Shown here: piece by piece, positions 6,328 to 45,496 of the stretch
Layout: the number at the start of each line of letters is the position of its first letter
Position numbering within the stretch: position 1 is the first letter of the stretch
Source of the DNA: a virus
DNA length: 64,000 bases
Virus record (IMG/VR): IMGVR_UViG_3300035660_000002
Location: 62,001-126,000 of that record
Direction: 5' to 3' (one strand)
Notes under the pieces: generated by a model
What the model was told of the DNA's origin: nothing
Seen by the model: only the letters and a program-made list of their open reading frames with translations
Database searches by the model: none
Program-made: the position numbers and the translations under genes

Positions 6328-6533
6328 GATATGATTCCTTCTACCTTTAAGTTTACTGCGTCCTTTGCTGTGTAATCAAAGTTATGAAGCTCTATGATAC
6401 CTGTTTCGGAATCTTTCAGCTGTATCTGAATCATGGCCTTGTGAACGTTCATGTACTCCAGTTGCCGTCCATCGAACATTCCCTTAAAGTCTTCGATCCA
6501 TTGATTCAGAGTCTTTTTCTTTTCGCTATTCAT
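6324..6533 (-). CDS. hypothetical protein, 69 aa
   Basis: A small soluble protein. A charged helix at the N-terminus (NSEKKKTLNQWIEDFKGMF) is followed by beta-strand-like stretches (AMIQIQL, TGIIELHNF). The start is preceded by GGGG only, so translation is likely coupled to the ComM-like gene that ends two bases upstream. No family is recognised. Confidence 0.65.
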   Translation of the reverse strand: MNSEKKKTLNQWIEDFKGMFDGRQLEYMNVHKAMIQIQLKDSETGIIELHNFDYTAKDAVNLKVEGIIS

Positions 6534-6535
6534 GT

Positions 6536-7228
6536 TTAACCCCAGAGATTCCGATCGAGGCTGCGGTAGCTGATTGCCTCCGATATATGATGCGCCTCGA
6601 TTACCCCCTTGTCGTCCATGGCTGCTATGGTCATCGCAACTCGCATCATCTTGTCGTAGGCCTTTGGCGATATGCCCAGTTCGAGAATCGCCAGCTTCAA
6701 GAGTTCGCCCGCTTCTTTATCCATATCAGGATCCCCTGTGATCGCCGGAACGAGTTTCTTTCTCCACTCCAGTATTTTGCCTCTTGCTATTACGACACGC
6801 TTTGATATATCCTCGCTCGGCTCGCCGATCCGCTTGGCCGCGTATTCTTTGTTCAGGAACGGAACTTCGATGTGGATGTCCGTTCTGTCGAGTATGGTCG
6901 ACGGTATACTGCCCAGATGATGCTGTATCTGAACCGGCGTGCATTTACACATCTTTTTAGGATGCGTGAAGTTGCCGCACTGGCATGGCCACATCATCGC
7001 TATCAGTAGAGGGATGCTGCCATTCACATACAGCTTGCTGTTCGTCGCATCCTCGACGATCTGATAGTCGCCCTCGTATATCGTCTTGAACCTTCTGGCC
7101 AGTGCCATCATGTCCTTGACGGACGGCCCGATCAGCATAAAGCTGTGCCCACCTGTCGCCGCTACCTCCATGCCTCGCTTAACATGCTCCTGACCGAGAA
7201 TATCTGATAAACACATACTTTTACTCAT
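6536..7228 (-). CDS. degenerate ComM/YifB-like (Mg-chelatase family) protein
   Basis: 230 residues, about half the usual ComM/YifB length of about 500. It keeps recognisable pieces of that AAA+ family: DILGQEHVKRGMEVAATGGH at the N-terminus, a four-Cys cluster (82, 84, 94, 96), then STILDRTDIHIEVP (sensor region), and a C-terminal lid with ISPKAYDKMMRVAMTIAAMD and AISYRSLDR. The Walker A loop has become GPSVKDMM with no GKT/S, and the Walker B segment is missing. It therefore should not hydrolyse ATP. It could be an inhibitor or a subunit that mixes with the host hexamer, which in bacteria acts in branch migration during DNA uptake. The start follows AAAGGAGAATGCA. Confidence 0.75.
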   Translation of the reverse strand: MSKSMCLSDILGQEHVKRGMEVAATGGHSFMLIGPSVKDMMALARRFKTIYEGDYQIVEDATNSKLYVNGSIPLLIAMMWPCQCGNFTHPKKMCKCTPVQIQHHLGSIPSTILDRTDIHIEVPFLNKEYAAKRIGEPSEDISKRVVIARGKILEWRKKLVPAITGDPDMDKEAGELLKLAILELGISPKAYDKMMRVAMTIAAMDDKGVIEAHHISEAISYRSLDRNLWG

Positions 7229-7292
7229 TGCATTCTCCTTTCACAATTGCTTTAAATTTACTCCATGATCCGAACATACTTATTACATAAAT

Positions 7293-7966
7293 GGTTTTCA
7301 TAATCTCACCGGTCTGCATTGCATACTTGGTTTTCAAATTGACGTCGGCTTGCATTATCTATCTGGGTTTCATTTCGCTTATGGCTTGCAAATCATTACT
7401 GGGTTCCATTCGTCCAGTGGCTCGCATTGACAACTTGGTTTTCAAATATTCGACGGCTCGCAAGCTGTATATGGTTTTCATAGTGTATGTGGCTTGCAGT
7501 ACTTTACTGGTTTTCATGTTTCAAAGGGCTTGCATTCATTGCCTGGTGTTCAAAATTAGCTCGGCTCGCAATCGTTCTATGGGTTTCGTATATAAAATGG
7601 CTTGCATGCCAAACACGGGTTTCAATTGTTTCATGGCTCACAAACTCTTTTTGGGTTCCACTCTTGCCTTGACTCACATCTACTAACCGGGTTTCAATTC
7701 TTTCGTGGTTCGCAGCCTAAGACAGGGTTTCACTACCATATTGGCTCGCACGCATGCCTTGGTTTTCAGACCCAGGGTGGCTTGCACATCTATGTTGGTG
7801 TTCACATTTCGTCTGGCTCGCAAGCAGGACATGGTTTTCATAAGCTATTCGGCTTGCATCCTTCTTTTGTTTTTCATTGTTCACTTGGCTCGCACCCTCA
7901 TTTTGGTTTTCAAGCATCATGCGGCTCACAAACTGTCAATGGGTTTCATGACTGTCACGGTCTACG
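7293..7966 (-). repeat. TIGR-like dual-guide array: 19 units of 36 bp
   Basis: Read on the plus strand, half-sites begin at 7293 and every 18 bases to 7959 with no phase slip. Even positions are type A: GGTTTTCA (8 of 19), GGGTTTCA (5), and single or double variants. Odd positions are type B: GGCTTGCA (7), GGCTCGCA (6), GGCTCACA (2) and variants. The ten bases between half-sites vary completely, except that the last base is T or C in 35 of 37 cases, leaving about nine variable bases. Type B copies are degenerate at both ends (7311 GGTCTGCA, 7959 GGTCTACG). The last half-site contains the stop codon of the gene at 7962-8918. Period, two alternating motifs and spacer length match tandem interspaced guide RNA arrays processed to 36-nt guides. 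The minus strand is inferred from the neighbouring gene. The short gap 7229-7292 holds only the ComM-like ribosome-binding site. Confidence 0.85.
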
Positions 7967-8918
7967 TCGCTACGCCTGCCGTTTCGTGATGCACATGACC
8001 CAACTTCTCCTCTTGATATGGTGGCCTTGGCGTCTGCCCTTCCAGCTTCCACCACGTTGCGTACAGGTCGATCAGGAATATCTTGATCATGTACCTAAGT
8101 GCCTTTGCATGCCTGTGCCCTTTGGTGCATCCAAATGCATCAAGCTTTGCCTTTAACACTTCCTCCCTGTTCGGCTTCGCCTTCTCTTCGTTGTTCAGGT
8201 GATCCACAGGCGCCTTGCTGCATGGCATGTTCGATATACGATGCTTATATTCATCATATATCTTACGGTACCTGGGGTTGTTCTGCTTCAGCAGACTCTC
8301 CCCGAGAATGTGCAGCTTCGCCTTCAGTAGCGGATTCCAGGTAATTTTCTCCCCTTTCCGAAGCTGTTGGATGGCAAACCCGTTCTTTTCTGCTAACCGA
8401 AGTCCGTATCCGCAGTACATCCACAACTTGGATACTGTGGCGAACCTCAAGATATTCCCGATCTCGCTCACCAGAGCGCCTGCCATAGTAGGGCCGATGC
8501 CTTTGATGTGGATAAGGTACTCTGTCCAGATCGGATGGTTCTTTAGCTCTGTCGATATGTCTTTGAGCACCTTCTTCTCTGTTGCTGTAATCTCGTCGAA
8601 ATACCCAAGCAGTTTGTCCTCAACAGCACCTGTTATGGTGTTCGTGAGCTTGCCTGCCTTACTGATCCTGTTGCCAAAGCTCATTCGTATGCTCTGCAGA
8701 TCGTAGAACGTCCTCACCAGCATCTTCATTGCACTTATGGGCAACACTCCAGGATCTTCGTGCTCGGCTACCCTCTCATCATATGATCCGGGCCCGTGTA
8801 TCTCGTCGTAGTCCTTTCGAAGCTGTGCGAGATACGCTTGGCGCTGCTTTTCCCTCTTACTCAACTTTACCTCTGCCGACTCCTCTACTACTTTTTCTTC
8901 CTTCTTCTTTCTACCCAT
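7962..8918 (-). CDS. tas: Tas-like (Nop/IS110-related) guide-RNA-binding protein, no nuclease domain
   Basis: 318 residues from ATG 8918, chosen for its AAAGGAGGG site; the frame also opens upstream at a TTG with no such site. Residues 1-30 are basic and charged. Residues 60-130 form long helices of the coiled-coil kind. Residues 138-157 (HIKGIGPTMAGALVSEIGNI) are a helix-hairpin-helix followed by KLWMYCGYGL, and 195-228 plus 266-294 continue the C-terminal half of IS110/IS116 transposases. The N-terminal DEDD/RuvC domain, any HNH motif and the IS110 catalytic serine are absent. Tas proteins of TIGR systems carry a Nop domain related to IS110 and box C/D proteins, with or without a nuclease. 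This is best read as a guide-directed DNA-binding protein for the adjoining array; a decayed IS110 fragment is the alternative. Confidence 0.8.
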   Translation of the reverse strand: MGRKKKEEKVVEESAEVKLSKREKQRQAYLAQLRKDYDEIHGPGSYDERVAEHEDPGVLPISAMKMLVRTFYDLQSIRMSFGNRISKAGKLTNTITGAVEDKLLGYFDEITATEKKVLKDISTELKNHPIWTEYLIHIKGIGPTMAGALVSEIGNILRFATVSKLWMYCGYGLRLAEKNGFAIQQLRKGEKITWNPLLKAKLHILGESLLKQNNPRYRKIYDEYKHRISNMPCSKAPVDHLNNEEKAKPNREEVLKAKLDAFGCTKGHRHAKALRYMIKIFLIDLYATWWKLEGQTPRPPYQEEKLGHVHHETAGVAT

Positions 8919-9041
8919 GCTACTTACCCTCCTTTTTTTGATATGTACTGCTGCTTCCACACTTTTGGCCGGGGGCTGCCACACTGGGTTGCGATTTAAG
9001 GCGCCACTCCTTTGATAGAGACTCAGCTCCAACCCCCCACG

Positions 9042-9953
9042 TTATTTATAGAAAATGTGTTTCCCTATCTGCACTGTCTTTACCCTGTCCTTTGCCCACC
9101 ATGGCCTTTCAAAATCGGTACTTTCAAAGTAAAGTGCACCCCCGGTTGTGTCCTCGCTGTTGTGCTCAAAGACGTCTGCCACGATCTCTTTTGCTGTCTT
9201 TTCTGCCTCGGGCCCCTCCTTGGCCACGAAGGCGTCGAGATCGTTCCTCTTGAGCCCTGCCAGGCCTGTATTCATGCCCTTTTTGAGCCTATTGCGACAA
9301 ACGCAGGCTGCCGCATATTGGCCCTCAAACCCCTCACCCACGGCTTCGGCTATGATCCCCTTCCATAGGTTCGCCGGTGGCTTCTTGGCCCTGTGCTGGG
9401 CCGGTACGCCTCTTGACATGCCCAAGGCGCTTGCCTCTGCCGGTCCTGCTATCACGGCTATGATCATTAGAGCGCTGCCGAACATCGCGCATATGATCCT
9501 ACGCAAGTTCTGCATCTCAAAATTGCGCCATGCCGATTCTACATACACGAACGGCTCTTTGTAGTGGTAGTGATTCCTGTCTATATGATCCTGCGCTGCT
9601 TTCTCTGTAAGGTACGTTTGGCCGCTGACCGGCACATCCTCGATTGAGTATTCTACCTTCCTGTTTTCAAGTTTGTGTTCTATGATGTCAACGTCAGTCA
9701 GATCTTTTGCATCTTCGGGATTCTCTTCACGGTACTCCGCTATCGCTTCTGCCTCCTCTTTCTCCGATAGTATATGCCCCTCTTTATCCAGCCATCCCCA
9801 CTTATCGCCACAACCTTCTGCCTTAAAAACGATCTGCTTTTGGTACACACAGTATAGAGGATGCGCTGTTAATCTATTATCCTGCGCCATGATCCGTCTC
9901 ATCATGTGTCGCAATAACTCATAGTCTTTTTCTGGTATCGCTATGTTGTTCAT
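9042..9953 (-). CDS. phage domain fused to SleB-type cell wall hydrolase
   Basis: 303 residues. The N-terminal 145 residues match a common stand-alone phage protein (TAHPLYCVY, WGWLDKEG, QTYLTEKAAQDHIDRNHYHY, VYVESAWRNFEM). A hydrophobic segment (about 150-175, ICAMFGSALMIIAVIAGPAE, then ASA) follows. The last 110 residues are Hydrolase_2/SleB: AEAVGEGFEGQYAAACVCRN with the catalytic-type Glu, ALYFES and a terminal IGKHIFY. The hydrolase part, read alone from Met at AWRNFEM, would have a perfect signal peptide. No ribosome-binding site precedes that Met, so a true fusion is favoured, putting one domain in the cytoplasm and the hydrolase outside. The start follows GAGGAAGTCGAT. SleB enzymes cut peptidoglycan. 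Confidence 0.8.
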   Translation of the reverse strand: MNNIAIPEKDYELLRHMMRRIMAQDNRLTAHPLYCVYQKQIVFKAEGCGDKWGWLDKEGHILSEKEEAEAIAEYREENPEDAKDLTDVDIIEHKLENRKVEYSIEDVPVSGQTYLTEKAAQDHIDRNHYHYKEPFVYVESAWRNFEMQNLRRIICAMFGSALMIIAVIAGPAEASALGMSRGVPAQHRAKKPPANLWKGIIAEAVGEGFEGQYAAACVCRNRLKKGMNTGLAGLKRNDLDAFVAKEGPEAEKTAKEIVADVFEHNSEDTTGGALYFESTDFERPWWAKDRVKTVQIGKHIFYK

Positions 9954-10339
9954 ATCGACTTCCTCACTATGTCACATACTTCCTCTTTCAGATCTACTAT
10001 AACCATACCTTTTTTATCATCCCATGCCGCTTTGAACTTCTTGCCAACGAGTTCCTGCACCCCGAAATGCTTTACAAAGGACTGCCCACTCACCTGACAA
10101 GCACGCCCTCCCGATATCTTATAAGAATGCTCCGGACGTGGTGCATTGCTAAACTTTACGCCAATCCTCTGTGTATCCTTGTCATAGCATAATTGGACGA
10201 ACTTAAACTCCTTCATCTTGGCTTCCCTTACCAACTTTGCACTAAACGTGAAGGCCCTACTGGGCTCTATCGCCATAAAAGATACTTTACTCTTTCTGCC
10301 TCTGCCTTCATACTTATTATGCCATCGGATCATTGTCAT
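9950..10339 (-). CDS. hypothetical protein, 129 aa
   Basis: A basic, mostly beta protein with no export signal. It contains RAFTFSAKLVREAKM, FKFVQLCYDKDTQRIGVKF and SGQSFVKHFGV. Its stop overlaps the start of the SleB fusion gene. It begins a few bases after the DUF6166 gene, and an in-frame Met at residue 3 is an alternative start because neither has a clear ribosome-binding site. I do not recognise a family; the form would suit a small nucleic-acid-binding protein. Confidence 0.7.
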   Translation of the reverse strand: MTMIRWHNKYEGRGRKSKVSFMAIEPSRAFTFSAKLVREAKMKEFKFVQLCYDKDTQRIGVKFSNAPRPEHSYKISGGRACQVSGQSFVKHFGVQELVGKKFKAAWDDKKGMVIVDLKEEVCDIVRKSI

Positions 10340-10340
10340 G

Positions 10341-10616
10341 TTATTTCGTCCACGGCCACTCGAACTTGATACTGAAATTCTTGCCCTGTGGCAGCTTTGC
10401 TATAATTTTCTCCTTCAAATCCTGATACCCTGTTGAATCATTGTATAGCCTCAACACGATCGCCAACGCCAGTTGCGCTGGCCCACTTCCAAAATACCCC
10501 CAATTGTATCCATCTGGACTGTGGTTCCTAACCTTCTGGCTTGGTGCCGGGTCCAGTGGCTTCCCGTCCAGCCATACCTCTCTTGTCGATGCTTTGCCTA
10601 TCAGAGTATGCTTCAC
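10341..10616 (-). CDS. DUF6166-type protein
   Basis: 91 residues from a GTG start behind GGGAGGGTTGTC. The middle, NHSPDGYNWGYFGSGPAQLA, is the hallmark of the DUF6166 family, common on phages and plasmids: nHS..G..WGY.GsGPaQLAlAi. The N-terminal V-W-L-D-G-K-P-L strand pair and terminal lysine-rich helix also fit. Family function is unknown. It shares GTGA with the stop of the 57-residue gene upstream. Confidence 0.8.
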   Translation of the reverse strand: MKHTLIGKASTREVWLDGKPLDPAPSQKVRNHSPDGYNWGYFGSGPAQLALAIVLRLYNDSTGYQDLKEKIIAKLPQGKNFSIKFEWPWTK

Positions 10617-16319: not shown

Positions 16320-16616
16320 TTACTTTGTGGGTGTTACGTTATCTGCTGATCGCTGTTTGACTAAGTAATAGAAGTTGAATACCAAGCTTATGATCAGCAT
16401 CGAATCTTTAGGATCAAGCGTCGTTAACGCCAGTTTGACGAACAGCACAACTATCATTGCCGTTCCTATGGATCTGACGCTTCCGACCCATTCCGCTTTT
16501 GACTTGTATCCTATATGAAACATGTATACAAGAATGAACCAGAGGATATTTTGATTTATGAACCCGAAAAAGCTACTCCAAAAATCTGCAGGTACTTGTG
16601 TCGGATTTATGATCAT
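16320..16616 (-). CDS. membrane protein, holin candidate
   Basis: 98 residues behind AAGGAGGACGT. Hydrophobic segments near residues 15-35 (FFGFINQNILWFILVYMFHI), 47-65 (SIGTAMIVVLFVKLALTTL) and 72-87 (MLIISLVFNFYYLV) give three spans, followed by a polar tail (KQRSADNVTPTK). Three spans and a charged C-terminus match class I holins. It lies just upstream in transcription of the two-span candidate, so the pair could be holin and antiholin. Confidence 0.6.
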   Translation of the reverse strand: MIINPTQVPADFWSSFFGFINQNILWFILVYMFHIGYKSKAEWVGSVRSIGTAMIVVLFVKLALTTLDPKDSMLIISLVFNFYYLVKQRSADNVTPTK

Positions 16617-16625
16617 ACGTCCTCC

Positions 16626-16964
16626 TTATTTTCCACGGATAGTCAGGTACCACTTATAATTATGCAGCACCAGCCCATATGCCAATTCAGAAGAACGAAG
16701 CAGCACTTCTGTATGAGGCTTGCTTGTGCCTATGACGTCCCATATTATTTTTGCACACAGCTCATGGCCCTCTTCTCCTGTATAGGACATCATCGCCACG
16801 GCCTCGCGCCATCCGTTCAGAAAGTAATCCGGCGCATGGTATATGTTGCCTGCCCGGGCCATGGCCCACGAGTGCTGGTTGCAATAATAGGACACCAGCC
16901 CATTCCAAAATGGCGGGTGTTGTATGCCATGATGTCGCCTAAAATCCTCGATTACGCGTATCAT
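16626..16964 (-). CDS. CAP/SCP-domain (PR1-like) protein
   Basis: 112 residues without a signal peptide. The whole chain follows the CAP superfamily pattern: an early helix with HSWAMARAGNIYH (His43), W-R-E-A-V-A (Glu54), then IIWDVIGTSKPHTEVLLRSS (the W..S..H...LL motif), and a final strand pair GLVLHNYKWYLTIRG. CAP proteins of bacteria (YkwD-like) are usually exported and poorly understood. Here the gene overlaps a membrane protein gene by four bases inside the lysis block, and absence of a signal suggests release through the holin. Confidence 0.75.
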   Translation of the reverse strand: MIRVIEDFRRHHGIQHPPFWNGLVSYYCNQHSWAMARAGNIYHAPDYFLNGWREAVAMMSYTGEEGHELCAKIIWDVIGTSKPHTEVLLRSSELAYGLVLHNYKWYLTIRGK

Positions 16965-17449
16965 CTAACGAATCCCCAGAACGGAACATAGATACACAAA
17001 ACTTGACATATGATAAATTGCTCAAGAGGAGCGTTGCTGAATGGGTTTAGCACTCCAAGTGCCACGCTCGTAAGCCCTGTTATGACCGCCAGCGTCATCA
17101 CAACCCATCCGGAGACGCTGAATCCTACAGCCCATAATCCTAGAGCACAGCATGACAGTACTCCCAACGCAAAAACTGTTCTTTTAACTACCTTCTCCAT
17201 TACGCTGCTGCCGCCATACGGCAGGCTGAATCCTACAATGAGCGCTGGCCAGAAACACAGGTACTGCACACACCAGCTATTCAGGTAAAAAGCAATCATA
17301 TTAGCCGCAACAGCCAATATGAATGATGCAATAAACCTTCTCCAGAACTTGCCGAATCCTGCTGTGCCTCCCCACATATAAAGTACGGCCGCAATAAAGC
17401 TCGCTCCACCTCCTATAGCTACTATTCCCCAGTTCTCAGTTCCCCACAT
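16961..17449 (-). CDS. polytopic membrane protein, 162 aa
   Basis: Starts behind GGGAGGATTT. About four membrane spans can be seen: residues 8-26, 40-56 (FIASFILAVAANMIAFYL), 64-75 and 92-133 (two spans around LSCCALGLWAVGFSVSGWVV). Low charge throughout. No family is recognised. Its stop overlaps the CAP gene start. A transport or lysis-timing role is possible, but nothing in the sequence shows it. Confidence 0.6.
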   Translation of the reverse strand: MWGTENWGIVAIGGGASFIAAVLYMWGGTAGFGKFWRRFIASFILAVAANMIAFYLNSWCVQYLCFWPALIVGFSLPYGGSSVMEKVVKRTVFALGVLSCCALGLWAVGFSVSGWVVMTLAVITGLTSVALGVLNPFSNAPLEQFIICQVLCIYVPFWGFVR

Positions 17450-17458
17450 AAATCCTCC

Positions 17459-17869
17459 CTATCTGGACGGTGCCATACGTGTCACAGAGGCCGTCCCGGC
17501 TTTAATTGTGTTGATTCTGCTCTTACTTGCTGTGATCTGCACGTTCAATGCCGCTATCTGATTATCTGCAAAAGCTTTCTTGTCCTTAAGAATTCCGGCC
17601 TTACGATCCTGCAGAGCTTTGATCTGCTGCTCAAGCCACGCAGTCTGTTTGTCTATGGCATCTATTTGCGTGTTGGCAAAAGCGTCTTTATCTTTCTGTA
17701 TCACAGTGACGCGACTCTCCTGGGCACTACTCGTGCTTTCGAGGTAGTGAAGCTTGTCCGCATCCGTCTTTCCAGGGATCAGCCAGTTTCTCAAACTTGC
17801 CTCATCTGCATATGCCAACGATGCAACCAGAACAGCAATGCATACGCCAAAAAATATTATTTTTTTCAT
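17459..17869 (-). CDS. exported coiled-coil protein
   Basis: 136 residues from ATG 17869 behind AAAAGGAGAAACAGT; an upstream in-frame ATG is not used. A clear signal peptide (KKIIFFGVCIAVLVASLAYA, cleavage after AYA) is followed by an almost continuous coiled coil in which a D-K-x-A-F-A-(D/N)-x-Q-I unit occurs twice (KDAFANTQIDAID and KKAFADNQIAALN). It is therefore periplasmic or surface-exposed. It ends the group of exported fibre-like genes and may associate with them; function unknown. Confidence 0.65.
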   Translation of the reverse strand: MKKIIFFGVCIAVLVASLAYADEASLRNWLIPGKTDADKLHYLESTSSAQESRVTVIQKDKDAFANTQIDAIDKQTAWLEQQIKALQDRKAGILKDKKAFADNQIAALNVQITASKSRINTIKAGTASVTRMAPSR

Positions 17870-36524: not shown

Positions 36525-38608
36525 TTTATCTCCTCCACCGCAAATTTGAATTTCTTTCCATCGGGGGATATAAGGATAATCCCGTTCGGACCATCCCAGT
36601 CTTCCTTTATTACCCAGTCGTTCATCATCTTGATATCGCCTGTATGTATATTCACACAGTAAATATCCGCCCATCTTATGGCGGTGTCACCAAGCTTGCC
36701 CGAGTTGTCCCCTCCATTCGGATTGATGTTGACTGCTGTCAATGTGTCTGTCCCGGGTATGTAAGTGAATGTATTCTCGCCTCCGAATGCGGTGCCGCCG
36801 CTATTGTATTGAACATAAGTGTCGGCTCCGCCCGGAGGAGTTACTACGGTAGCCCAAGCTAACACTGCGGATCCATTCGTAGTCAGAGCCTGCCCTGTTG
36901 TGCCGTCAGCGACCGGCAAAGTATAAGCTGTGTCAGCTGTCTGCGATGCCGAGGGGGTCAAGGATACAAAACGGTCTGTACCTCCATTCTCGGAATACAA
37001 CTTGAGAGACCCCGACAGCGTATTTTTACCAAGGAGCAACTGCTGCGTTCCAGTCGTAAATGTAAAGCCCGCATCTGCTCCAAAAGCGCCTGAATTATTA
37101 AACTGCACTTGCGTGTCCGACCCGGCTACACCAACAGATCCTCCTGCTACCCATGACATAACACCGCCTGTGGTAGACTGTAGAAAGCCGCTACTGCCTA
37201 CCGGCATAGCTGTCGGCAGTGTGTAGGTAGCAGTCGCGCTCTGTGTACCTGCCGTTAACTCTGTATAATATGCGTTATTCCCCGCACTCCATAGTTTCAT
37301 CTCCCCTGCAATGTTGGGTGTGGCGGGAGTCTCGTCTTTACCTAGCTCTATAGCATTTACACACTGGAAATACACAGTCGTAGGCGTAGTTGCGCCTCTA
37401 CCTGTTACAGACTGTAATGTAGACGTGTCTGCTATTGTAGTTATCCCAACCCCTGGAGTTACCGATATGTCCGTTCCGGCAGTCAATACTTTCTCGTTAG
37501 GCAACGATCCCGACACACTCGATACCACAAATTCGGGAGACGCCGGAGCCACATCTACACCGATCCCCATACCACGCCAATTATGAAAGTACCCCACTGT
37601 CGTTGTTCCTGCTATCAGTAGAGGTTTATTGATGTATCCTACAGTTACCGGAGCTGTCGCTGTCAAAGCTCCGGCAGTTGCTCCACTCAAGAAGTGAACA
37701 GCTCCTGGAGTAAGTCCTACAAGTCCTGAAACGTTTCCTTCTACTGCTAACCAGAAGTTATCCGGGTCCACAATAATGGCTACAATGCCCACAACTTCTG
37801 CGTTTGTTTCGGTATCTGCTTTCGCTTTAACGAAAAGACTTGTACCGGCATCCCATCGTAAAACGTCCCCAATAGCAAAACCATGTAACGTTTGTGCGAC
37901 AAGTTTGTAAACTGTTGAGAATGGAACAGTAGTTGCAGGATTCGCCCACTCCATTGCAGTGCCATTCCACCTGATGTAGTAGTTCGTTAGGGCGCTGTTG
38001 TTCATAGCCAACTTAGGTTCTGTGACACTATCATCTGCCAACTGGGCTGTATCCACCCCCAGAGCCTTGATTCGTAAAGTATCCGTATTAGTCTCTAAAG
38101 TTGTTCCATCAACATTAACCGTAAGAGCATTGGTGCCCCCCGCAAGAGAAAGACCGTCCCCAGCAGTATCTGCATTGAGCTTCAGTGCTGTTATCCCGCT
38201 ATCCTTGACTCGTAGTGTGTCAGTATTGATCTCTATAGTAGAATCATCGACGTTGACGTAAAGATTAAGTCTCTCATCTCCTCCCGGAACCAGAGTCGCT
38301 TTCGACAACCCATCTCCTGCCAGTAGTTTGGTGTTTAGGTACCCCGAGGTCGTGTCTGCTACGGTAACTCTCACATATTTATCACCTCCGCTGGCTATAA
38401 GAGCCCATGCGGCGCCTGTCCATTGATATAAGGAATCTGTGTCTCTGACGAGATGCATATCCCCCACTTGATTTCCGATAGCAGGAAGAGAGGCATAGGT
38501 TGCCACAGGAGATCTCCAGTGTTTATCCGCCATGCCTGCCTGTTCCGCAAGACACAGGCTTGTCATAAAACTCGTCAACATTACGAAAATTAGAGCAATT
38601 CTTCTCAT
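36521..38608 (-). CDS. fibre protein with export signal, 695 aa
   Basis: Starts at ATG 38608 behind GGAGGTATTAAA. Signal peptide: RRIALIFVMLTSFMTSLCLA. Next comes a module shared with other phage fibres, YASLPAIGNQVGDMHLVRDT followed by LYQWTGAAW. The body is Gly/Thr/Ala-rich beta repeats, with LGDTAIRWADIY near the end, the same module as in the 1886-residue fibre. The C-terminus WDGPNGIILISPDGKKFKFA probably caps the trimer. Likely a host-binding fibre paired with the 1351-residue protein. Confidence 0.72.
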   Translation of the reverse strand: MRRIALIFVMLTSFMTSLCLAEQAGMADKHWRSPVATYASLPAIGNQVGDMHLVRDTDSLYQWTGAAWALIASGGDKYVRVTVADTTSGYLNTKLLAGDGLSKATLVPGGDERLNLYVNVDDSTIEINTDTLRVKDSGITALKLNADTAGDGLSLAGGTNALTVNVDGTTLETNTDTLRIKALGVDTAQLADDSVTEPKLAMNNSALTNYYIRWNGTAMEWANPATTVPFSTVYKLVAQTLHGFAIGDVLRWDAGTSLFVKAKADTETNAEVVGIVAIIVDPDNFWLAVEGNVSGLVGLTPGAVHFLSGATAGALTATAPVTVGYINKPLLIAGTTTVGYFHNWRGMGIGVDVAPASPEFVVSSVSGSLPNEKVLTAGTDISVTPGVGITTIADTSTLQSVTGRGATTPTTVYFQCVNAIELGKDETPATPNIAGEMKLWSAGNNAYYTELTAGTQSATATYTLPTAMPVGSSGFLQSTTGGVMSWVAGGSVGVAGSDTQVQFNNSGAFGADAGFTFTTGTQQLLLGKNTLSGSLKLYSENGGTDRFVSLTPSASQTADTAYTLPVADGTTGQALTTNGSAVLAWATVVTPPGGADTYVQYNSGGTAFGGENTFTYIPGTDTLTAVNINPNGGDNSGKLGDTAIRWADIYCVNIHTGDIKMMNDWVIKEDWDGPNGIILISPDGKKFKFAVEEIK

Positions 38609-39564
38609 TTTAATACCTCCGATGTATGAACATCTCTCTTGCCCTGTACCATCTTTCTTATCGGACAAATACAGTTAATTCTATTGTCCTCAAATTCTTC
38701 TGACCCTATGATTTCCTCCAGAGAGTAACAGTGCAGATCGCCCATGATCTTGCTATAAGGTAAGCAACAAGAGAGCACAGTCCCGTTCTCCTGTATTTTC
38801 AGTATACCCACAGTATTATGACAATATTTGCTTGGAGCAATCTTCCTCCATAACTTATATATAGCATGAAAGGTGCCAGGTATCTGTAGTAATGGCCTGT
38901 GGTAGAACCCTAAGAAAGCACTCACATCTGCGTTATGCTTCACCAAGAATATCCTATCCAGATACTCAGTATCCTTTGGTGGCTTATCAAGTTTATATGG
39001 CTTCTCAAGATTCTTGAGGAACTGGAACTCCTGGAACTTCACGGCATCTACGCCCAGCTCATCAGCTAAGTTCATAATTGCTTCCATATTGTAGAAGTTA
39101 TAGTTGCTGACAGTAGTTTGGATAGTCACCCTCTTGCCACAGCTCTTGAAATACTTGATGTTGTCTATAATACAGTCAAAGAAACAGTTGGGTCTCAGGA
39201 ACTCCTGGAGATCCTTGTTGGCTGCGTCCAGGGATATCACAAACTCAACATTCATATCTTTGAGTATCTCACGGTGCCTATCAGATATATCTGAGAAGTT
39301 ACTGGTAATCAGAGTCTTGAAATGATACTTCTTTATGTCCTCGAAGACCGTCTCAATACGGGAATACATAAGTACTTCACCACCACCAGCCAAGTCCAAG
39401 ATGTCAATGGTTGGGAATACCTTATCACGAATACCGATATAGGTCACTTCGTCCAGCTCGAACCTGCTGTGTTGCTCTTGATTAGAGTGCCAGCACATAA
39501 GACATTTGCCGGGACAACGATTGGTCAGACCCAACATCAGCGTTTTAATTTCCTTTAACTGCAT
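38605..39564 (-). CDS. radical SAM enzyme with extra C-terminal Cys cluster
   Basis: 319 residues from ATG 39564 behind AAAGAGGGAAACTC. The CxxxCxxC 4Fe-4S motif is at Cys17/21/24 (TNRCPGKCLMCWHS), followed by LDLAGGGEVLM (SAM-binding GGE). A SPASM-like C-terminal region has CHNTVGILKIQENGTVLSCC and CICPIRK, which could hold auxiliary clusters. The gene overlaps the next radical SAM gene by 20 bases and is clearly its paralogue (T-N-R-C...CWHSN; SNYNFY). Such enzymes generate a 5'-deoxyadenosyl radical to modify peptides, sugars or nucleotides. The target is not known. Confidence 0.85.
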   Translation of the reverse strand: MQLKEIKTLMLGLTNRCPGKCLMCWHSNQEQHSRFELDEVTYIGIRDKVFPTIDILDLAGGGEVLMYSRIETVFEDIKKYHFKTLITSNFSDISDRHREILKDMNVEFVISLDAANKDLQEFLRPNCFFDCIIDNIKYFKSCGKRVTIQTTVSNYNFYNMEAIMNLADELGVDAVKFQEFQFLKNLEKPYKLDKPPKDTEYLDRIFLVKHNADVSAFLGFYHRPLLQIPGTFHAIYKLWRKIAPSKYCHNTVGILKIQENGTVLSCCLPYSKIMGDLHCYSLEEIIGSEEFEDNRINCICPIRKMVQGKRDVHTSEVLK

Positions 39565-40543
39565 GAGTTTCCCTCTTTGATATCTTGCACGAACATACAC
39601 GACGTATTCTGTCGTACCGGTCGTTATCCATTATCTGCTCCAGAGTATTCTCACTCAGGTTGCCTATCGCCTTACACTCGTGACAGGAACAGAAATAAAT
39701 CTGCCCATCAACATCCACCTTTATAAAGCTACGGGATATGGGACAGTATTCTTTACGCCTCATCATAGCCCAGAGGTTTGCTATCTTTACCTTAGTTCCT
39801 GCTCCTAAGGCGGTAAGAGGATCCATGACACAGTAGACTGCTCTCATTGGGCTGATAAGAGCAGAGGTTCTTCGGTGGTAGTCCAACCATAGATCATAGT
39901 TAATCTTGTAGTGACCATGAACTAAATTATGGATATATTCCCTATCCACCGGGGGAGCCTCAAACTTAAGGGGCCTGTCGAGGCACTCCAAGTACTGGGC
40001 TCCATGAAATATGATACCCTCTACCCCCAGCTTCTCGCCTAGCTTCATCATCCGTTGCATATCATAGAAGTTATAGTTGCTTATGGTCATACGTATCGTG
40101 ACCCTCTTCTTGTTCTTCACAAAGAAGGAGATATTCTCGAGTACCTTTTCATAGTTACATTGTGGCCTCATAAACTCTTGTAGTGCCTTGGTAGAACCAT
40201 CAAGAGAGACTATGAAACGTACGTCTGCGCTCACCATAAACTCACGCTGTCTATTGGTGATAACAGAGAAGTTGCTCTCAATTGTAGTCTTAAAGTCATA
40301 CTTCTTCATATCGTAAAGAACCTCATCTATATACTTACAGGCAAAGGCCTCTCCCCCAGACAGTAGGTCTAAAATATTAAGTTTGGGAAACACCTTGTTC
40401 CTCAGCTCTTCATATATCCTATGATCCAAATCGATTATGCTTGGTAAAGTCTCAGGTTCATTGGAATGCCAACAGGTGCGACAGTGACTATTGCACCTAT
40501 TGGTTAGACCTAGCTTGAGATATCTGACTGAATCCACCTTCAT
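39545..40543 (-). CDS. radical SAM enzyme, tandem paralogue
   Basis: 332 residues. Cys17/21/24 form the CxxxCxxC motif (TNRCNSHCRTCWHS), LDLLSGGEAFACK is the SAM-binding GGE, and the C-terminus carries YCPISRSFIKVDVDG, CSCHECKAIGNLSE and RRVCSCKIS as possible SPASM clusters. Residues LGLTNRC, I.DLL.GGE, FIVSLD.....QEF.RP and SNYNFYDM are shared with the neighbouring enzyme, so the two arose by duplication. Probably both act on the same substrate or on successive steps. Confidence 0.85.
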   Translation of the reverse strand: MKVDSVRYLKLGLTNRCNSHCRTCWHSNEPETLPSIIDLDHRIYEELRNKVFPKLNILDLLSGGEAFACKYIDEVLYDMKKYDFKTTIESNFSVITNRQREFMVSADVRFIVSLDGSTKALQEFMRPQCNYEKVLENISFFVKNKKRVTIRMTISNYNFYDMQRMMKLGEKLGVEGIIFHGAQYLECLDRPLKFEAPPVDREYIHNLVHGHYKINYDLWLDYHRRTSALISPMRAVYCVMDPLTALGAGTKVKIANLWAMMRRKEYCPISRSFIKVDVDGQIYFCSCHECKAIGNLSENTLEQIMDNDRYDRIRRVCSCKISKRETHAVKGN

Positions 40544-41925
40544 ACCATCACCGCTTGTATTAAATCTCTATATTTTATAACACCATGACGATCAACCAAA
40601 TGGCTACAGTATTTCTGTACTATTTCATGCAACTCCTCTACTCTAAACTCCTCGGAAGCCAAGGGATATAGAACGGGATGTAGCTCCTCAAGTGTCCAGT
40701 CTTTGCCTAAGAACTCACGCGCATACTCAAACTCCTGAGTCTTTGGCACGGGAGTAAACATTAGAACCACAGGTAACGCCCCCGCGTCCTCGACTATCTG
40801 TATAGTCTCACAGGCTTCCTCATATGTTTGTCCTAAACAACCTATCATAACGAAGGAGTTCAGGACCAAGCTCTTTTTAAGAGACCCTATTTTTGTCTTC
40901 CAAAACTCTGCGTCTAAGCGCCTATGCCACCTTGTTAACAGCTTCTCAGATGAACTCTCAATCGGCACTCCAATACTACGAAATCCTGCTTCATGCATCA
41001 GCTCTAATATCTCGGTGGTCAGAGGCTGCGGATCTAGCCCCCCATATGCTTTCAGGTAGAACTTTAGATTCCTCTTCACGATACCCTCAAGGATTACCTT
41101 GAAGTGCTTCTCATAGTTTACAAGGAAATTGGAATCCAGGAACTCTATCTCTTTAATTCCATTAGCATAATAATACTCGAGCTCATCCAATACATCCATA
41201 GGATCGCGCCGTATATGCTCATGTCCCTCTACCACAGGAACCGCACAATACCCACAACTATTGGGACATCCTAGTGCTGTAAGTATCCCCACCAAACAGG
41301 GGTGCTCTTCATATAATGAAAGGTCTATGCGAGTAAAATCATCCTCGCACCCTTTTGACTTGGTTACTACTTTATCCGCACCCAACTTCTGGGCGTGCTC
41401 TGTGCATAGTGTAGGATATAGACCACCTATCCATATTTCTGCCGAGGAGAAGTTCTCCCTTGTGGCATCTATGGTTTCTTTAACCCCCTCCCATAGGTAT
41501 GTGAATGCTTGGGATATGACCACCACATCTGGCTGAAATTCCAACAATTTCTTCACATATGAGGATAACGGTCGGCCTATACGCACAAGTTGACGGGTAA
41601 AGTGCTCCTTCTCCCAATTTCCACACTTTCTCTCCCCCATGGGAGTGAGTATCTTTTCACCCTTATAGTATAACTCCCCGTCCACCAACTCCCATATATT
41701 CTTACAGTTCCAGATTGACTCTCTTCCTTTATTGCACTCCTCAAAGGTCTTGTAGTTATCACCCCGGCAGCGATACCCAGGAAGATCAGGTCTTATGTTA
41801 AACACAGCAACCTCGTGCCCCTGCTTCTTGTACATAGAAGCTATACGGTAGGTGGGAATCATAGTTGCTCTACTTACCATCTCGGTATAGCCAAACTCTG
41901 CGGGGTAAACAACTAATATTTTCAT
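40540..41925 (-). CDS. B12-binding-type radical SAM enzyme
   Basis: 461 residues. An N-terminal flavodoxin-like segment (KILVVYPAEFGYTEM...ISQAFTYLWEGVKETIDATR...IWIGGLYPTL) follows the layout of cobalamin-binding radical SAM enzymes. The Elp3-like core has LGCPNSCGYC (Cys220/224/227) and IKEIEFLDSNF. This subgroup (for example BchE and relatives) often carries out methyl transfers or ring changes, but no specific activity can be assigned. The expected DxHxxG cobalamin ligand is not obvious, so cobalamin binding is uncertain. Confidence 0.78.
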   Translation of the reverse strand: MKILVVYPAEFGYTEMVSRATMIPTYRIASMYKKQGHEVAVFNIRPDLPGYRCRGDNYKTFEECNKGRESIWNCKNIWELVDGELYYKGEKILTPMGERKCGNWEKEHFTRQLVRIGRPLSSYVKKLLEFQPDVVVISQAFTYLWEGVKETIDATRENFSSAEIWIGGLYPTLCTEHAQKLGADKVVTKSKGCEDDFTRIDLSLYEEHPCLVGILTALGCPNSCGYCAVPVVEGHEHIRRDPMDVLDELEYYYANGIKEIEFLDSNFLVNYEKHFKVILEGIVKRNLKFYLKAYGGLDPQPLTTEILELMHEAGFRSIGVPIESSSEKLLTRWHRRLDAEFWKTKIGSLKKSLVLNSFVMIGCLGQTYEEACETIQIVEDAGALPVVLMFTPVPKTQEFEYAREFLGKDWTLEELHPVLYPLASEEFRVEELHEIVQKYCSHLVDRHGVIKYRDLIQAVMV

Positions 41926-42629
41926 TTCACTCTTCTCTCTATGGCCCCACTTACATCAGTAATATACTTAAACAATATCTCCCTATCAATCTCACAGTAG
42001 TCAACCTTGATATAGAAATACAGCTTCATTCTGTTAAACATATAATCGGTATAACTCACATTGTAGGCTACCTTGAAGGGCCCTACTGGAAAATTATACT
42101 TTGGGTATACTTCAGTGAACGCTTCGTCCAATAGTTTAAGTATCTTAGGTTCAATTCCTCTCTTGTATACCCTGAAGCTCACATACAGACATCTCTGACC
42201 GTGACCATCGCATGAAGCGAATGTTCTAACGTGCTTAATCCTATTAACAGCATCGACGAGAGGCTTTACGCCTCGGTCGATACTGAACGTGTGCCTAAAG
42301 GGACCAGCGTGGCACTCTCCTGATACAGAGTTTCTCTTTGGAACCTTGATATCAGGATACTTGGCCATCAGGTCTTCGTCACTCTGTTCCAAGAAATACT
42401 TTGGTTTTATCATTGCTATCATCTTGGGAACATCAAGAGAGCTTATGGCATCAGCGAACACTACATCTCCCTTACGATCTATCCTCTTCAATAGTTTAGA
42501 TTCAACGAAAGAGATATCACCGACTTTGAACAGAAATTCATTGAACTCTCTGCTCATAGTCTTGACATCTATCATATGTTCCTTATCCTCAATGAAAAGG
42601 ATTAGGTTGAACCAAACTTGGTACTTCAT
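41922..42629 (-). CDS. hypothetical protein between radical SAM genes
   Basis: 235 residues. No known family. Visible features are a Phe/Tyr-rich opening (KYQVWFNLILFIEDKEHMID), GECHAGPFRHTFSIDRGVKP in the middle, then VRTFASCDGHGQRCLYVSFR and a C-terminus rich in aromatic residues. The C-D-G-H-G and two further His/Cys might bind a metal. Overlaps of four bases on both sides place it firmly in the radical SAM operon, so it may be an accessory or substrate-binding protein of that pathway. Confidence 0.6.
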   Translation of the reverse strand: MKYQVWFNLILFIEDKEHMIDVKTMSREFNEFLFKVGDISFVESKLLKRIDRKGDVVFADAISSLDVPKMIAMIKPKYFLEQSDEDLMAKYPDIKVPKRNSVSGECHAGPFRHTFSIDRGVKPLVDAVNRIKHVRTFASCDGHGQRCLYVSFRVYKRGIEPKILKLLDEAFTEVYPKYNFPVGPFKVAYNVSYTDYMFNRMKLYFYIKVDYCEIDREILFKYITDVSGAIERRVK

Positions 42630-43972
42630 TTAGACGTACTTTCCTTCTCCTCTTTTGAAACCGTTATTTCCGCAATTTTCTTCAGTAACGGAATGATTAT
42701 CTCATTCTGGTGCCTGATCTCCGTTAACGTCTTGAGTAGCACATTCATACCCTGAATCATTAGATCTTCTGCATCTACCCCTAGCACCTTCGCACCCTTG
42801 CTCATGACTATCCCCCTTCTTTTGCTTGTTGGCGATTTGTAAACTGAAAATGCACTCAATGTGTTATTACACTCCTCAAAGAGCCTGTCAGAATATTTAT
42901 TCACGAACTCTTGATTCATCCTGCAAAACTCGCAATACCCTGTTGTGGGTTTTGCCGCAGCTTTTCCCTCTAAGTACTTGTTTGTGGCAAAGCACCTAAC
43001 ACAGGTATACGAGGTGCATTTCATGCAATCCTTGTTAGAGAAGTGCACTGCCTTTATCTCCTTTAGTTTATCGTTATTAGGATCTACCCAACTCTGTACG
43101 TCTCCTAATTTATAGTCAAAGTGTTTACGGTACGCTATAAAACGATGACAGGGATATATCTCACCATCTACAGTTACCCCTACCATCTGATCTCCCGCAT
43201 GACACCCTTTGTAGTCACCCGGACTATAACAACCTACTCTCCTCTCATTCGCTTCAATAAGCGGAGAATTGAGGAGACTCAAGAACTTAACCGGTGTTGT
43301 CTTTAACTGCTCGAAGAACAATTTGTATATTTTCTCAAGTTGCTCCTTGGCTTTGTCCAAAACTGGATTCCAATCCTCCTCTATAATTGGCGTCATTTGA
43401 ACTACATCAGCCATATCAGAAAGAGCGACATAATCATCATAGAATTTGTCCACCCGAGAGGGTAACAGGGTTTCTCTCACCTGTATGTCGGGAATTATAC
43501 TGCGAAACTTTTTTATATTACCGGCAATAAGCTTAAAAGAATCCTGACCTCCGATCATAGGTCTACTTTGATTGTGTGATTCTTCACAACCATCCACACT
43601 TATCTGAAGCTTTAACCTATGCCCCATCGAGGCTTTATACCTACCAAGGAATTCGTGAATATCCTCATTCCACACAGTACCATTCGATAGAATATATATT
43701 GAGAATACTATCCCTTTCTTGCGCAGACCCTCTACGTATTCAAAGGTGTTCTTCATTACCTCCCAATTTAGGAAGGGTTCACCACCAAAGAAATTGATAT
43801 TGAAGTGCGAACCAAGATTGGCCTGATGTCCTGGCTCATAATGCGCCACCATCTGGTCTATAAGCTTCTCCATAGTTCCCCATTCCATATCACCTGTTCG
43901 GTCTTGTTCGTAACAATAAGAGCAATTCAGGTTGCACCTATTTGTTATCAGAACGTACACACTACTGATCAT
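42626..43972 (-). CDS. radical SAM/SPASM peptide-modifying enzyme (anSME/RiPP-maturase type)
   Basis: 448 residues behind GGGGAGGTAACAGTC. CxxxCxxC at Cys13/17/20 (TNRCNLNCSYCYEQ), FFGGEPFLNWEVMK and LQISVDG are core motifs; GCHAGDQMVGVTVDGEIYPC then CMKCTSYTCVRC and YCEFCRMNQEF form the SPASM domain with auxiliary 4Fe-4S clusters. This is the architecture of sulfatase-maturing enzymes and RiPP maturases that crosslink Cys or other side chains in peptides. The C-terminal 90 residues are a helical extension. Occurrence in a phage next to a Cys-rich structural protein (45509) makes peptide modification plausible but not proven. Confidence 0.85.
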   Translation of the reverse strand: MISSVYVLITNRCNLNCSYCYEQDRTGDMEWGTMEKLIDQMVAHYEPGHQANLGSHFNINFFGGEPFLNWEVMKNTFEYVEGLRKKGIVFSIYILSNGTVWNEDIHEFLGRYKASMGHRLKLQISVDGCEESHNQSRPMIGGQDSFKLIAGNIKKFRSIIPDIQVRETLLPSRVDKFYDDYVALSDMADVVQMTPIIEEDWNPVLDKAKEQLEKIYKLFFEQLKTTPVKFLSLLNSPLIEANERRVGCYSPGDYKGCHAGDQMVGVTVDGEIYPCHRFIAYRKHFDYKLGDVQSWVDPNNDKLKEIKAVHFSNKDCMKCTSYTCVRCFATNKYLEGKAAAKPTTGYCEFCRMNQEFVNKYSDRLFEECNNTLSAFSVYKSPTSKRRGIVMSKGAKVLGVDAEDLMIQGMNVLLKTLTEIRHQNEIIIPLLKKIAEITVSKEEKESTSK

Positions 43973-43994: not shown

Positions 43995-44516
43995 TCATAG
44001 CTTTAACATGCTTAGATCTGGATATAGGTTTTGCACATCCGGCATCTCCCGCATAGTTGCAAGTATCTTAAGCCCTCTAGCAGCCTTGTCTGGATAAAAC
44101 TCAACCCTTTTCTCTACCCTAGCTTTTTTAAACCATTGAACATCCTCGACATCGTCACAAAGAATCATTCCTCCCCTACCTATATAGATTGACCCTCTTG
44201 GCTGTGCAAATGATATACAGAAGTATGTGCCTGGAATATACATATCCTTCTTGAATCGCAAAGCACAATCATAAATAGGGTACGGTTTCAATTGATAGCA
44301 GCCTGACCACTCTCTATCTTCAAATGCTACCGAACCTCCTGCATCCATAATAGCGTAGCAAATTTTCACTGTGGTCTTTTTTGGTATAACTACCTTCCCA
44401 ACACTTAAATGTGAGCAGCACAAACCAATAGCACTTGCTCCTGTGTTGGTAGCTACACCATACTTGGCACCAGCATACTTAGCTGTTATATTCTCAAATT
44501 CTTCTACTAAATTCAT
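43995..44516 (-). CDS. truncated DegT/StrS-like aminotransferase fold protein
   Basis: 173 residues behind AAAGGGTAAGTA. It covers the first part of the DegT/DnrJ/EryC1 fold: LVEEFENITAKYAGAKYGVA, then TNTGASAIGLCCSHLSVGKV, VIPKKTTVK and a late SFAQPRGSIYIGRGGMILCD. Full enzymes are about 370-400 residues, and the PLP-lysine position (usually ..tKhl..geGG) holds Arg. Catalysis in the normal way is therefore unlikely. It may be a binding protein for a sugar or cofactor in this pathway. One-base overlap with the aldo/keto reductase gene. Confidence 0.65.
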   Translation of the reverse strand: MNLVEEFENITAKYAGAKYGVATNTGASAIGLCCSHLSVGKVVIPKKTTVKICYAIMDAGGSVAFEDREWSGCYQLKPYPIYDCALRFKKDMYIPGTYFCISFAQPRGSIYIGRGGMILCDDVEDVQWFKKARVEKRVEFYPDKAARGLKILATMREMPDVQNLYPDLSMLKL

Positions 44517-45496
44517 TACTTACCCTTTAATACGTTTATGTTCAATGGATTCTTGAAGTAATTTAACTGAGTAGCAAATGGTCTCGTCTTGCCTTCGAGC
44601 ACTTTTTTATCGGCTTCTGCTAATGGTATAATGTTATTAAATGCCACCCAATCCTCCTCCAACTGAGGTAAACCATTACACCCCAATAATACCACATCTG
44701 GGTTATATGACGCGACATAGTTCAGACAATCCTGATATATCTGAAAAACCTCTAAGGCACCTTCCTCCTTCTTATAACCACACTTCGGACACACCCATTT
44801 AGCAGTAACCGGCTTAGTCAAGTACGCTACCCTGTCAAGTGGTGTTCTTACACAAGTTGGGCACTCTGGATGTCCTGAATCTAGAGACTTGCCAAACTTT
44901 TTGGCGAGTCCATCCGTAATATTCCTGAAATATGGTAAAACCTGATCCTGACTTTTCCCTCTCATGAAAACCTGCATGGCAATCAGCTTCGTTTTTGTCC
45001 TATCAATATTAGGTAACACCTCCATTATAAATGATGATTGATGCTTGTCCGCAATATTCATCGTCATCATTGCATAATCGAATGTATACACCTTCAGAAC
45101 GTCCCTAAGTAAAAATGGGTCTCTGTTACAGGTAATCCCCACATACTTTACCTTTCCACTCTTCTTGGCGGCATCCAACGCTGGTAGAATTTTTATATCG
45201 TACGGCGTTGCTAAATCGTGTAAATTCCAGATGTCTACGTAATCTGTCCGCAGCTCTCTAAGACTACGCTCCAGCAAAGCCAATGCCTGAGCTGGATCCC
45301 TGTAGTGGGATTTAGTCGAAATAACAACCTCGTTTCTGGGTATACCAGACAATTTTAATGCTTCACCAAATAAACCCTCATTCCTTCCATTGCTATACAG
45401 AGGTGCTGTGTCAAAAAACCGGACACCCAATTCAAATGCCCTCTTCATAACAGGTGGATTATTTCCAGCTTTTTCAAGTCCAAGTCCAAATATCAT
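44516..45496 (-). CDS. aldo/keto reductase with inserted zinc ribbon
   Basis: 326 residues behind GAGGAGGATAAA. NADPH-dependent AKR core: FFDTAPLYSNGRNE carries the catalytic Asp and Tyr, ISTKSHY the Lys, and IWNLHDLATP the His; the barrel strands follow (VKYVGITCN, LLGCNG). Between strands a CPTC...CPKC zinc ribbon (about residues 211-240) is inserted, which is unusual for the family and may bind a partner protein. Four residues of the catalytic tetrad are present, so it is probably active on an unknown carbonyl substrate. Confidence 0.85.
   Translation of the reverse strand: MIFGLGLEKAGNNPPVMKRAFELGVRFFDTAPLYSNGRNEGLFGEALKLSGIPRNEVVISTKSHYRDPAQALALLERSLRELRTDYVDIWNLHDLATPYDIKILPALDAAKKSGKVKYVGITCNRDPFLLRDVLKVYTFDYAMMTMNIADKHQSSFIMEVLPNIDRTKTKLIAMQVFMRGKSQDQVLPYFRNITDGLAKKFGKSLDSGHPECPTCVRTPLDRVAYLTKPVTAKWVCPKCGYKKEEGALEVFQIYQDCLNYVASYNPDVVLLGCNGLPQLEEDWVAFNNIIPLAEADKKVLEGKTRPFATQLNYFKNPLNINVLKGK

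What the first reader, a model, noticed from the sequence alone, without database searches (positions are those of the whole stretch)
7293..8918. TIGR-Tas-like dual-guide RNA system in a phage, nuclease-less form
A 674-bp array with perfect 18-bp phasing of two alternating motifs (36-bp units) directly follows a gene with the C-terminal fold of IS110 transposases and no nuclease domain. Established knowledge: TIGR-Tas systems of phages pair a Nop-domain protein, related to IS110 and box C/D proteins, with arrays processed to 36-nt RNAs that carry two short spacers. Period, spacer size and protein type all agree. A form lacking RuvC, HNH and the IS110 serine would bind but not cut DNA, suggesting gene silencing or competition between phages.
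Basis: partly seen in the sequence, partly recalled or inferred. Interest (0 to 1): 0.96.

Follow-up and report, generated by a model that had tools for sequence, protein, structure and literature searches.

The report
Phage TIGR-TasA dual-guide RNA system
An uncultured tailed phage carries a nuclease-less TasA gene fused to an array of 19 two-part guide RNAs, a further member of the TIGR-Tas systems published in 2025, which probably binds rather than cuts 18-bp DNA targets that I could not identify.

Summary
On the minus strand, 19 units of exactly 36 nt (7283-7966) alternate a 9-nt edge repeat (TGCRAGCCR) and a 9-nt loop repeat (TGAAAMCCA) with 9-nt spacers. They start inside the stop codon of a 318-aa gene (7962-8918). 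That protein passes the curated NCBIfam cut-off for TIGR-Tas (164.6 bits against 100), and its best structural matches are TasR and TasH; IS110 transposases come next. It has no RuvC, HNH or DEDD domain, so it is TasA, the commonest, already described form. A DNA pattern of the two repeats alone pulled 51 stretches out of 2.9 million viral contigs, and 43 of them also encode a Tas protein. No spacer pair matches the phage's own 133-kb genome, other TIGR phages or (three pairs tested) IMG/VR above chance, so what it silences is unknown. One feature that I did not find in the main text of the founding paper: in 15 of 32 independent loci, this one included, the tasA stop codon is supplied by the array's first repeat. 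Verdict: a genuine new member of a known kind; function of TasA still open.

The parts
7962..8918 (-). tasA, 318 aa, solo Nop-domain protein; N-terminal tail 1-60, coiled coil about 61-125, C-terminal RNA-binding part about 129-305
   Evidence: NCBIfam NF052498 TIGR_Tas_endo 164.6 bits, cut-off 100; phmmer to TasR 9mty E 6.8e-26 and TasH 21kl E 1.3e-8; AlphaFold model mean pLDDT 82.8, Foldseek top 11 all TasR or TasH
7283..7966 (-). TIGR dual-repeat array, 19 units of 36 nt: edge repeat (9) + spacer A (9) + loop repeat (9) + spacer B (9)
   Evidence: direct reading and unit table; same design found by pattern alone in 51 IMG/VR stretches
7958..7966 (-). first, 5'-truncated edge repeat CGTAGACCG; bases 3-5 are the tasA stop codon TAG (7964-7962)
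   Evidence: sequence; the same overlap in 15 of 32 non-redundant loci
7949..7957 (-). spacer A of unit 1 (TGACAGTCA); following units repeat every 36 nt down to unit 19, spacer A 7309-7301
7940..7948 (-). loop repeat of unit 1 (TGAAACCCA); box D TG and box C CC(A), 18 more copies at 36-nt steps
   Evidence: loop and edge counts
7274..7282 (-). degenerate 3' end of the array (TAAGTATGT in the place of the last edge repeat)
   Evidence: no intrinsic terminator on the minus strand in 6400-10500
6536..7228 (-). next gene downstream, Mg-chelatase subunit ChlI-like protein; same strand, own ribosome-binding site; neighbour, not part of the system
   Evidence: Pfam Mg_chelatase 1.3e-19 and Mg_chelatase_C 2.9e-12
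9042..9953 (-). next gene upstream, cell-wall hydrolase; neighbour, not part of the system
   Evidence: Pfam Hydrolase_2 7.5e-10, phrog_938 endolysin

Best explanation
This is a TIGR-TasA system of a tailed phage. tasA and the array are read as one transcript. Inferred from the characterised systems: the array RNA is cut in the middle of each edge repeat into 36-nt tigRNAs; a TasA dimer holds one tigRNA through the box D (UG) and box C (CC(A)) motifs of the edge and the loop repeat; spacer A then pairs with one DNA strand and spacer B with the other at an 18-bp site, which is unwound and bent. As TasA has no nuclease it stays bound and blocks transcription or replication of the target. The targets are probably foreign (host or competing elements), as the phage's own genome holds no match above chance. 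Shown here: array anatomy, gene identity, lack of nuclease, motif conservation, strand and gene-array fusion, lack of self-targets. Inferred: transcription, processing, DNA binding, silencing.
For: Array with 36-nt units, 9-nt spacers and two alternating repeats. TIGR-Tas equivalog model passed, 164.6 against 100 bits. Sequence match to TasR E 6.8e-26, profile match 2.8e-80; TasH 3.4e-43. Predicted fold: TasR first (E 8e-11), TasH, then IS621/ISCro4 at E about 1e-3, and Nop5 weakly (1nt2, probability 0.82, E 1.4). Ten relatives found by protein, among them the closest two, carry 36-bp arrays beside the gene, and 43 of 51 stretches found by repeat pattern encode the protein. 46 of 46 arrays parsed next to a Tas gene lie on its strand. 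Over all loci the edge pair 3-6 is C-G or U-G in 443 of 465 units, edge pair 2-7 is G-C or G-U in 463 of 465, and box D of edge and loop vary together: TG/TG 383, AG/AG 50. Paper: PMC12045711.
Against: No RNA data. No target found for any spacer pair. No intrinsic terminator was found at the array's end, whereas the paper describes one as typical. The repeats are more diverged than in some relatives (8 loop and 11 edge variants in 19 units). The window protein's place in the tree among array-bearing Tas proteins is only moderately supported (85/95).
Confidence: 0.88

Rival explanations
1. TIGR-TasA used not against competitors but as a regulator of host genes, or as a DNA-bending aid to recombination of the phage genome.
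For: Faure et al. name gene regulation and help to integrases as possible roles. No foreign phage target was found, which leaves host targets open.
Against: No spacer pair matches the phage's own genome better than mispaired controls, so own-genome use is unlikely. No tyrosine or serine recombinase in the 133-kb record, though the record may be incomplete.
Confidence: 0.35
2. A degenerate IS110-type transposon with a chance tandem repeat.
For: Pfam names the domain Transposase_20 and PHROGs calls the family transposase.
Against: No DEDD domain; no serine between residues 163 and 208, where IS110 proteins have their SGSS stretch; IS110 equivalog scores 29.8 against a cut-off of 140, the Tas model 164.6 against 100; the array is regular over 19 units and the same design recurs with the same protein in dozens of viruses.
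Confidence: 0.02
3. The array is translated: a repeat protein is read from it.
For: Long open frames on the strand opposite to tasA (131 aa at 7291-7686); one antisense frame has fewer stops than shuffled spacers over all loci, 66 against 96 +/- 10.
Against: In the window stop numbers lie within two standard deviations of shuffled spacers in every frame (10 antisense stops in 17 units); over all loci the best frame still has a stop about every six units; a sense frame shows a like deficit (159 against 191.5), so position bias inside spacers explains it; all arrays share the strand of tasA, which points to a sense RNA.
Confidence: 0.02
4. The guides act on RNA (as box C/D snoRNAs do) rather than on DNA.
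For: The fold is shared with Nop5 (weak).
Against: The characterised relatives TasR and TasH act on DNA and TasR did not act on RNA (PMC12045711); the protein has no part that would recruit a methyltransferase.
Confidence: 0.05

Closest known systems
TIGR-TasA (Faure et al. 2025, e.g. the Flavonifractor plautii FpTIGR locus)
   Same: Solo Nop-domain protein without nuclease, dual-repeat array of 36-nt units with 9-nt spacers beside the gene
   Different: No real difference in kind. 19 units, where 5-15 is usual; no terminator found after the array; an own N-terminal tail of about 60 residues; array begins inside the stop codon (shared by about half of the independent loci examined here)
TIGR-TasR (PDB 9mty)
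   Same: Nop domain by sequence (E 6.8e-26) and fold; UG and CCA motifs in both repeats; A-rich loop repeat; extra pair in the edge repeat
   Different: TasR has an N-terminal RuvC nuclease; this protein starts at the coiled coil after a mostly helical or disordered tail
TIGR-TasH (Salicola phage; PDB 21kl, 9w04)
   Same: Nop domain and tigRNA design
   Different: TasH has an N-terminal HNH nuclease; absent here
IS110/IS621 RNA-guided transposases (8wt6, 9t56)
   Same: Common C-terminal fold
   Different: No DEDD domain, no SGSS stretch, guide RNA in an array of many units instead of one bridge RNA
Box C/D snoRNP (Nop5, 1nt2)
   Same: Distant fold match; box C/D-like motifs
   Different: snoRNPs use fibrillarin, an L7Ae-type protein and k-turn RNA; these were not looked for here, and this protein comes with an array of short repeats instead

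Membership tests
TIGR-Tas | Nop-domain protein of the Tas family | tested here: met
   NF052498 164.6 bits against a cut-off of 100; PDB sequence and fold matches to TasR and TasH first
TIGR-Tas | Adjacent array of two distinct alternating 8-12-nt repeats with about 9-nt spacers | tested here: met
   19 units, 9-nt repeats and 9-nt spacers, exact 36-nt period
TIGR-Tas | Box D (UG) and box C (CCA) in both repeats; extra pair in the edge repeat | tested here: met
   Loop TGAAAMCCA, edge TGCRAGCCR; edge 3-6 pair C-G 13, U-G 3, C-A 2 in the window; 443 of 465 C-G or U-G over all loci
[quoted passage not shown]
   CGTAGACCG at 7966-7958
[quoted passage not shown]
   The last edge is degenerate (TAAGTATGT); no terminator-like site on the minus strand. 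The paper calls this typical, not required
TIGR-Tas, TasA form | No HNH or RuvC nuclease domain | tested here: met
   No such match; model shows no beta strand; residues 1-60 are one long helix, a short one and coil; no upstream frame long enough for a nuclease
TIGR-Tas | Array processed to 36-nt RNAs that bind the protein | not testable with these tools
   needs small-RNA sequencing
TIGR-Tas | Tandem-spacer targeting of both DNA strands | not testable with these tools
   No natural target found; needs a binding assay
IS110 family transposase | DEDD domain and catalytic serine | tested here: not met
   N-terminal domain absent; no serine at residues 164-207; NF033542 29.8 against 140 bits
CRISPR-Cas | Single repeat of about 25-36 nt with spacers of like size; Cas proteins | tested here: not met
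   Two alternating 9-nt repeats, 9-nt spacers; no PADLOC match for the protein
Box C/D snoRNP | Nop5/fibrillarin/L7Ae complex on k-turn RNA | not tested
   Only a weak fold match to Nop5; partners were not searched for

The most novel reading that the evidence does not exclude
Array and effector gene are fused to a purpose: the first repeat of the array supplies the tasA stop codon, so that maturation of the first tigRNA cuts the tasA message in or at its stop codon and makes it non-stop. TasA made in excess would then shut off its own synthesis (tigRNA maturation as negative feedback).
Probability: 0.12. Interest if true: 0.65.

Novelty: new member of a known kind. Interest (0 to 1): 0.42.

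Why it matters
TIGR-Tas was described only in 2025 and what the nuclease-less TasA does in nature is an open question. This locus adds a long, intact array in a 133-kb phage, and the set of more than 50 related arrays collected here gives two handles on that question: the repeated fusion of the array to the tasA stop codon, and sister phages with near-identical TasA whose arrays exchange whole 36-nt units. It also shows that such arrays can be found by DNA pattern alone, without the protein.

Tried and rejected
Own-genome targets: all 19 spacer pairs in both geometries and with gaps of 0-2, against mispaired controls, no excess. Cross-targets in about 1.08 Mb of related loci: no exact match; pairs at up to 2 mismatches in the expected geometry 82 against 38-86 in 33 shuffles; distinct units 71 against at most 68, but the shuffles mix loci of different base content, so I do not count it. 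IMG/VR exact scans for three pairs: 1, 9 and 0 hits; of the 9, eight are copies (seven near-identical, one 87% alike) of one phage gene, so 1, 2 and 0 independent events, which is what chance would give. Close relatives of the flanking genes: none. TasA in genome contigs: none by the one pattern used; in plasmids: none. A ParB partner: the two ParB_N hits in the record are ParB-methyltransferase fusions 12-17 kb away, not an operon partner. Translation of the array: rejected. Rfam has no family for it. The N-terminal 60 residues match nothing in the loci.

Full report
What is there. On the minus strand of the window the gene at 8918-7962 (318 aa) is followed without a gap by 19 units of exactly 36 nt. 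Each unit is an edge repeat (consensus TGCRAGCCR), a 9-nt spacer A, a loop repeat (consensus TGAAAMCCA) and a 9-nt spacer B. Matches at a shift of 36 bases are 0.555, at 18 bases 0.431, and 0.267 on average over shifts of 10-79. The array stretches from the tasA stop codon (7964-7962, which forms bases 3-5 of the first, truncated edge repeat CGTAGACCG) to about 7283. No intrinsic terminator follows. The next gene (7228-6536) is a Mg-chelatase-like protein on the same strand.

The window lies at 62001-126000 of a 133,462-base virus record. It encodes tail sheath, tail tube and baseplate proteins, so it is a tailed phage with a contractile tail. No close relative of the genes flanking tasA was found in IMG/VR.

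What the protein is. It passes the curated NCBIfam cut-off for TIGR-Tas (164.6 bits against 100) and fails that for IS110 (29.8 against 140). By sequence its best solved relative is 9mty, which is TasR (E 6.8e-26), then TasH (E 1.3e-8); with a family profile 2.8e-80 and 3.4e-43, IS621 1e-7 and ISCro4 4e-7. The AlphaFold model (mean pLDDT 82.8, pTM 0.75, 46 sequences) finds TasR and TasH in the first 11 places, then IS621 and ISCro4, and Nop5 weakly. The match to TasR begins at the coiled coil, after the RuvC part of TasR. The first 60 residues of this protein hold helix and coil but no strand, so neither RuvC nor HNH; there is no serine between residues 163 and 208, where IS110 proteins have their SGSS stretch. 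It is therefore a TasA.

Independent tests of the link between protein and array. A search with a small protein alignment gave 47 loci in IMG/VR; ten of them, among them the two closest (42% and 35% identity), have arrays with a period of exactly 36 beside the gene. In the reverse direction, a pattern made of the two repeats alone (TGAAAMCCR N9 TGCRAGCCR N9 TGAAAMCCR) found 51 stretches, 43 of which encode a Tas-family protein; most of the remaining eight are stretches cut by a contig end or further pieces of contigs already counted. By base count the pattern should occur by chance about once in 10^14 positions. In 46 of 46 cases the array has the strand of the gene. In the tree the window protein groups with array-bearing proteins (85/95), and 18 actinophage-type homologues without dual-repeat arrays form one clade (100/100).

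The motifs behave as the published structure requires. In 465 units the edge pair 2-7 is G-C or G-U in 463, the edge pair 3-6 is C-G or U-G in 443, the loop pair 2-7 is G-C or G-U in 463, and box D is TG in both repeats or AG in both in 433 units. My parser required the G of box D and most of the motif, so the edge 3-6 pair and the joint change of box D are the informative counts. The paper reports the same joint variation of edge and loop (PMC12045711).

How it most likely works. Shown for relatives (PMC12045711): arrays are cut to 36-nt RNAs in the middle of the edge repeats; TasA, TasR and TasH bind them; in TasR and TasH the two spacers pair with opposite strands of an adjoining DNA site. 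Inferred here: TasA of this phage does the same without cutting, and blocks transcription or replication of what it binds. For the target geometry I used spacer A followed by the reverse complement of spacer B; this is the order that fits the paper's statement of 8-nt 3' overhangs under its C - 5 rule. The own-genome and cross-locus searches were also run in the opposite order.

What it aims at is not known. None of the 19 pairs matches the phage's own 133 kb better than mispaired controls, so own-gene regulation is unlikely. None matches the other TIGR loci exactly, and at up to two mismatches the counts lie within or at the edge of shuffles that are not fully matched for base content. Three pairs scanned exactly against all of IMG/VR gave 1, 2 and 0 independent events, which is what chance would give. 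The source metagenome could not be searched.

An anatomical point that I did not find in the main text of the founding paper (its supplement could not be read): in 15 of 32 non-redundant loci with an array downstream of the gene, the first box C starts 3-6 bases after the first base of the tasA stop codon, so that the first repeat of the array supplies the stop codon (TAG-CCA, TAA-GCCA, TGA-GCCA, TGA-AAACCA). Sixteen of 32 offsets fall into these four of 18 possible phases (binomial p 5e-4). [quoted passage not shown] That would be a feedback on TasA synthesis. It is untested. Two dull alternatives stand: compactness of phage genomes, and the fact that a loop repeat of the TGA type brings its own stop codon when a reading frame runs into the array.

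Array turnover. Five contigs with almost identical TasA (L060, L068, L078, L085, L089; branches 0-0.02) share only some of their 7-12 units, in different order, with spacer A and B kept together and with point changes in some spacers. The 36-nt unit is thus the piece that is gained, lost and moved. By contrast the pairs L073/L076, L074/L083 and L080/L107 have identical parsed arrays in different contigs.

Verdict. The form without nuclease is the known TasA, so this is a new member of a known kind. Its interest lies in the open function of TasA.

Noticed in passing
window 7966-7958; L011, L012, L021, L059, L060, L062, L073, L081, L082, L087, L091, L098, L101, L108: The tasA stop codon lies inside the first repeat of the array in 15 of 32 independent loci.
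   Followed up: partly
L060, L068, L078, L085, L089: Sister phages with near-identical TasA carry arrays in which whole 36-nt units are shared, reordered or replaced, with point changes in some spacers.
   Followed up: partly
L002-L005 and most of L019-L057 (actinophages, mostly mycobacteriophages): Tas-family proteins annotated as transposase or hypothetical, one clade, without a dual-repeat array in the stretches fetched (3-5 kb on each side where available); other kinds of guide RNA array were not looked for.
   Followed up: partly
L048:5997-7335: A ParB-like protein frame, judged by eye, begins right after the array behind tasA and a third array lies beyond it, like the tasParB operons of the founding paper.
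   Followed up: no
L008:12765-14093 and 16359-17729 (same phage, outside the window): Two ParB-domain DNA methyltransferases, each beside an HNH-type protein.
   Followed up: no
window 38605-43972: Several radical-SAM-like proteins in a row between structural genes, next to an aldo-keto reductase-like gene (44516-45496); judged from reading the translations only.
   Followed up: no
all parsed arrays: Position 9 of both spacers is G in 46% and C in 9-10% of units over all loci, not in the window; it may belong to the repeat in some groups.
   Followed up: no
window 8918-8739 (protein residues 1-60): Charged N-terminal tail with a fairly confidently predicted helix (residues 21-41) and no match in the related loci.
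   Followed up: partly
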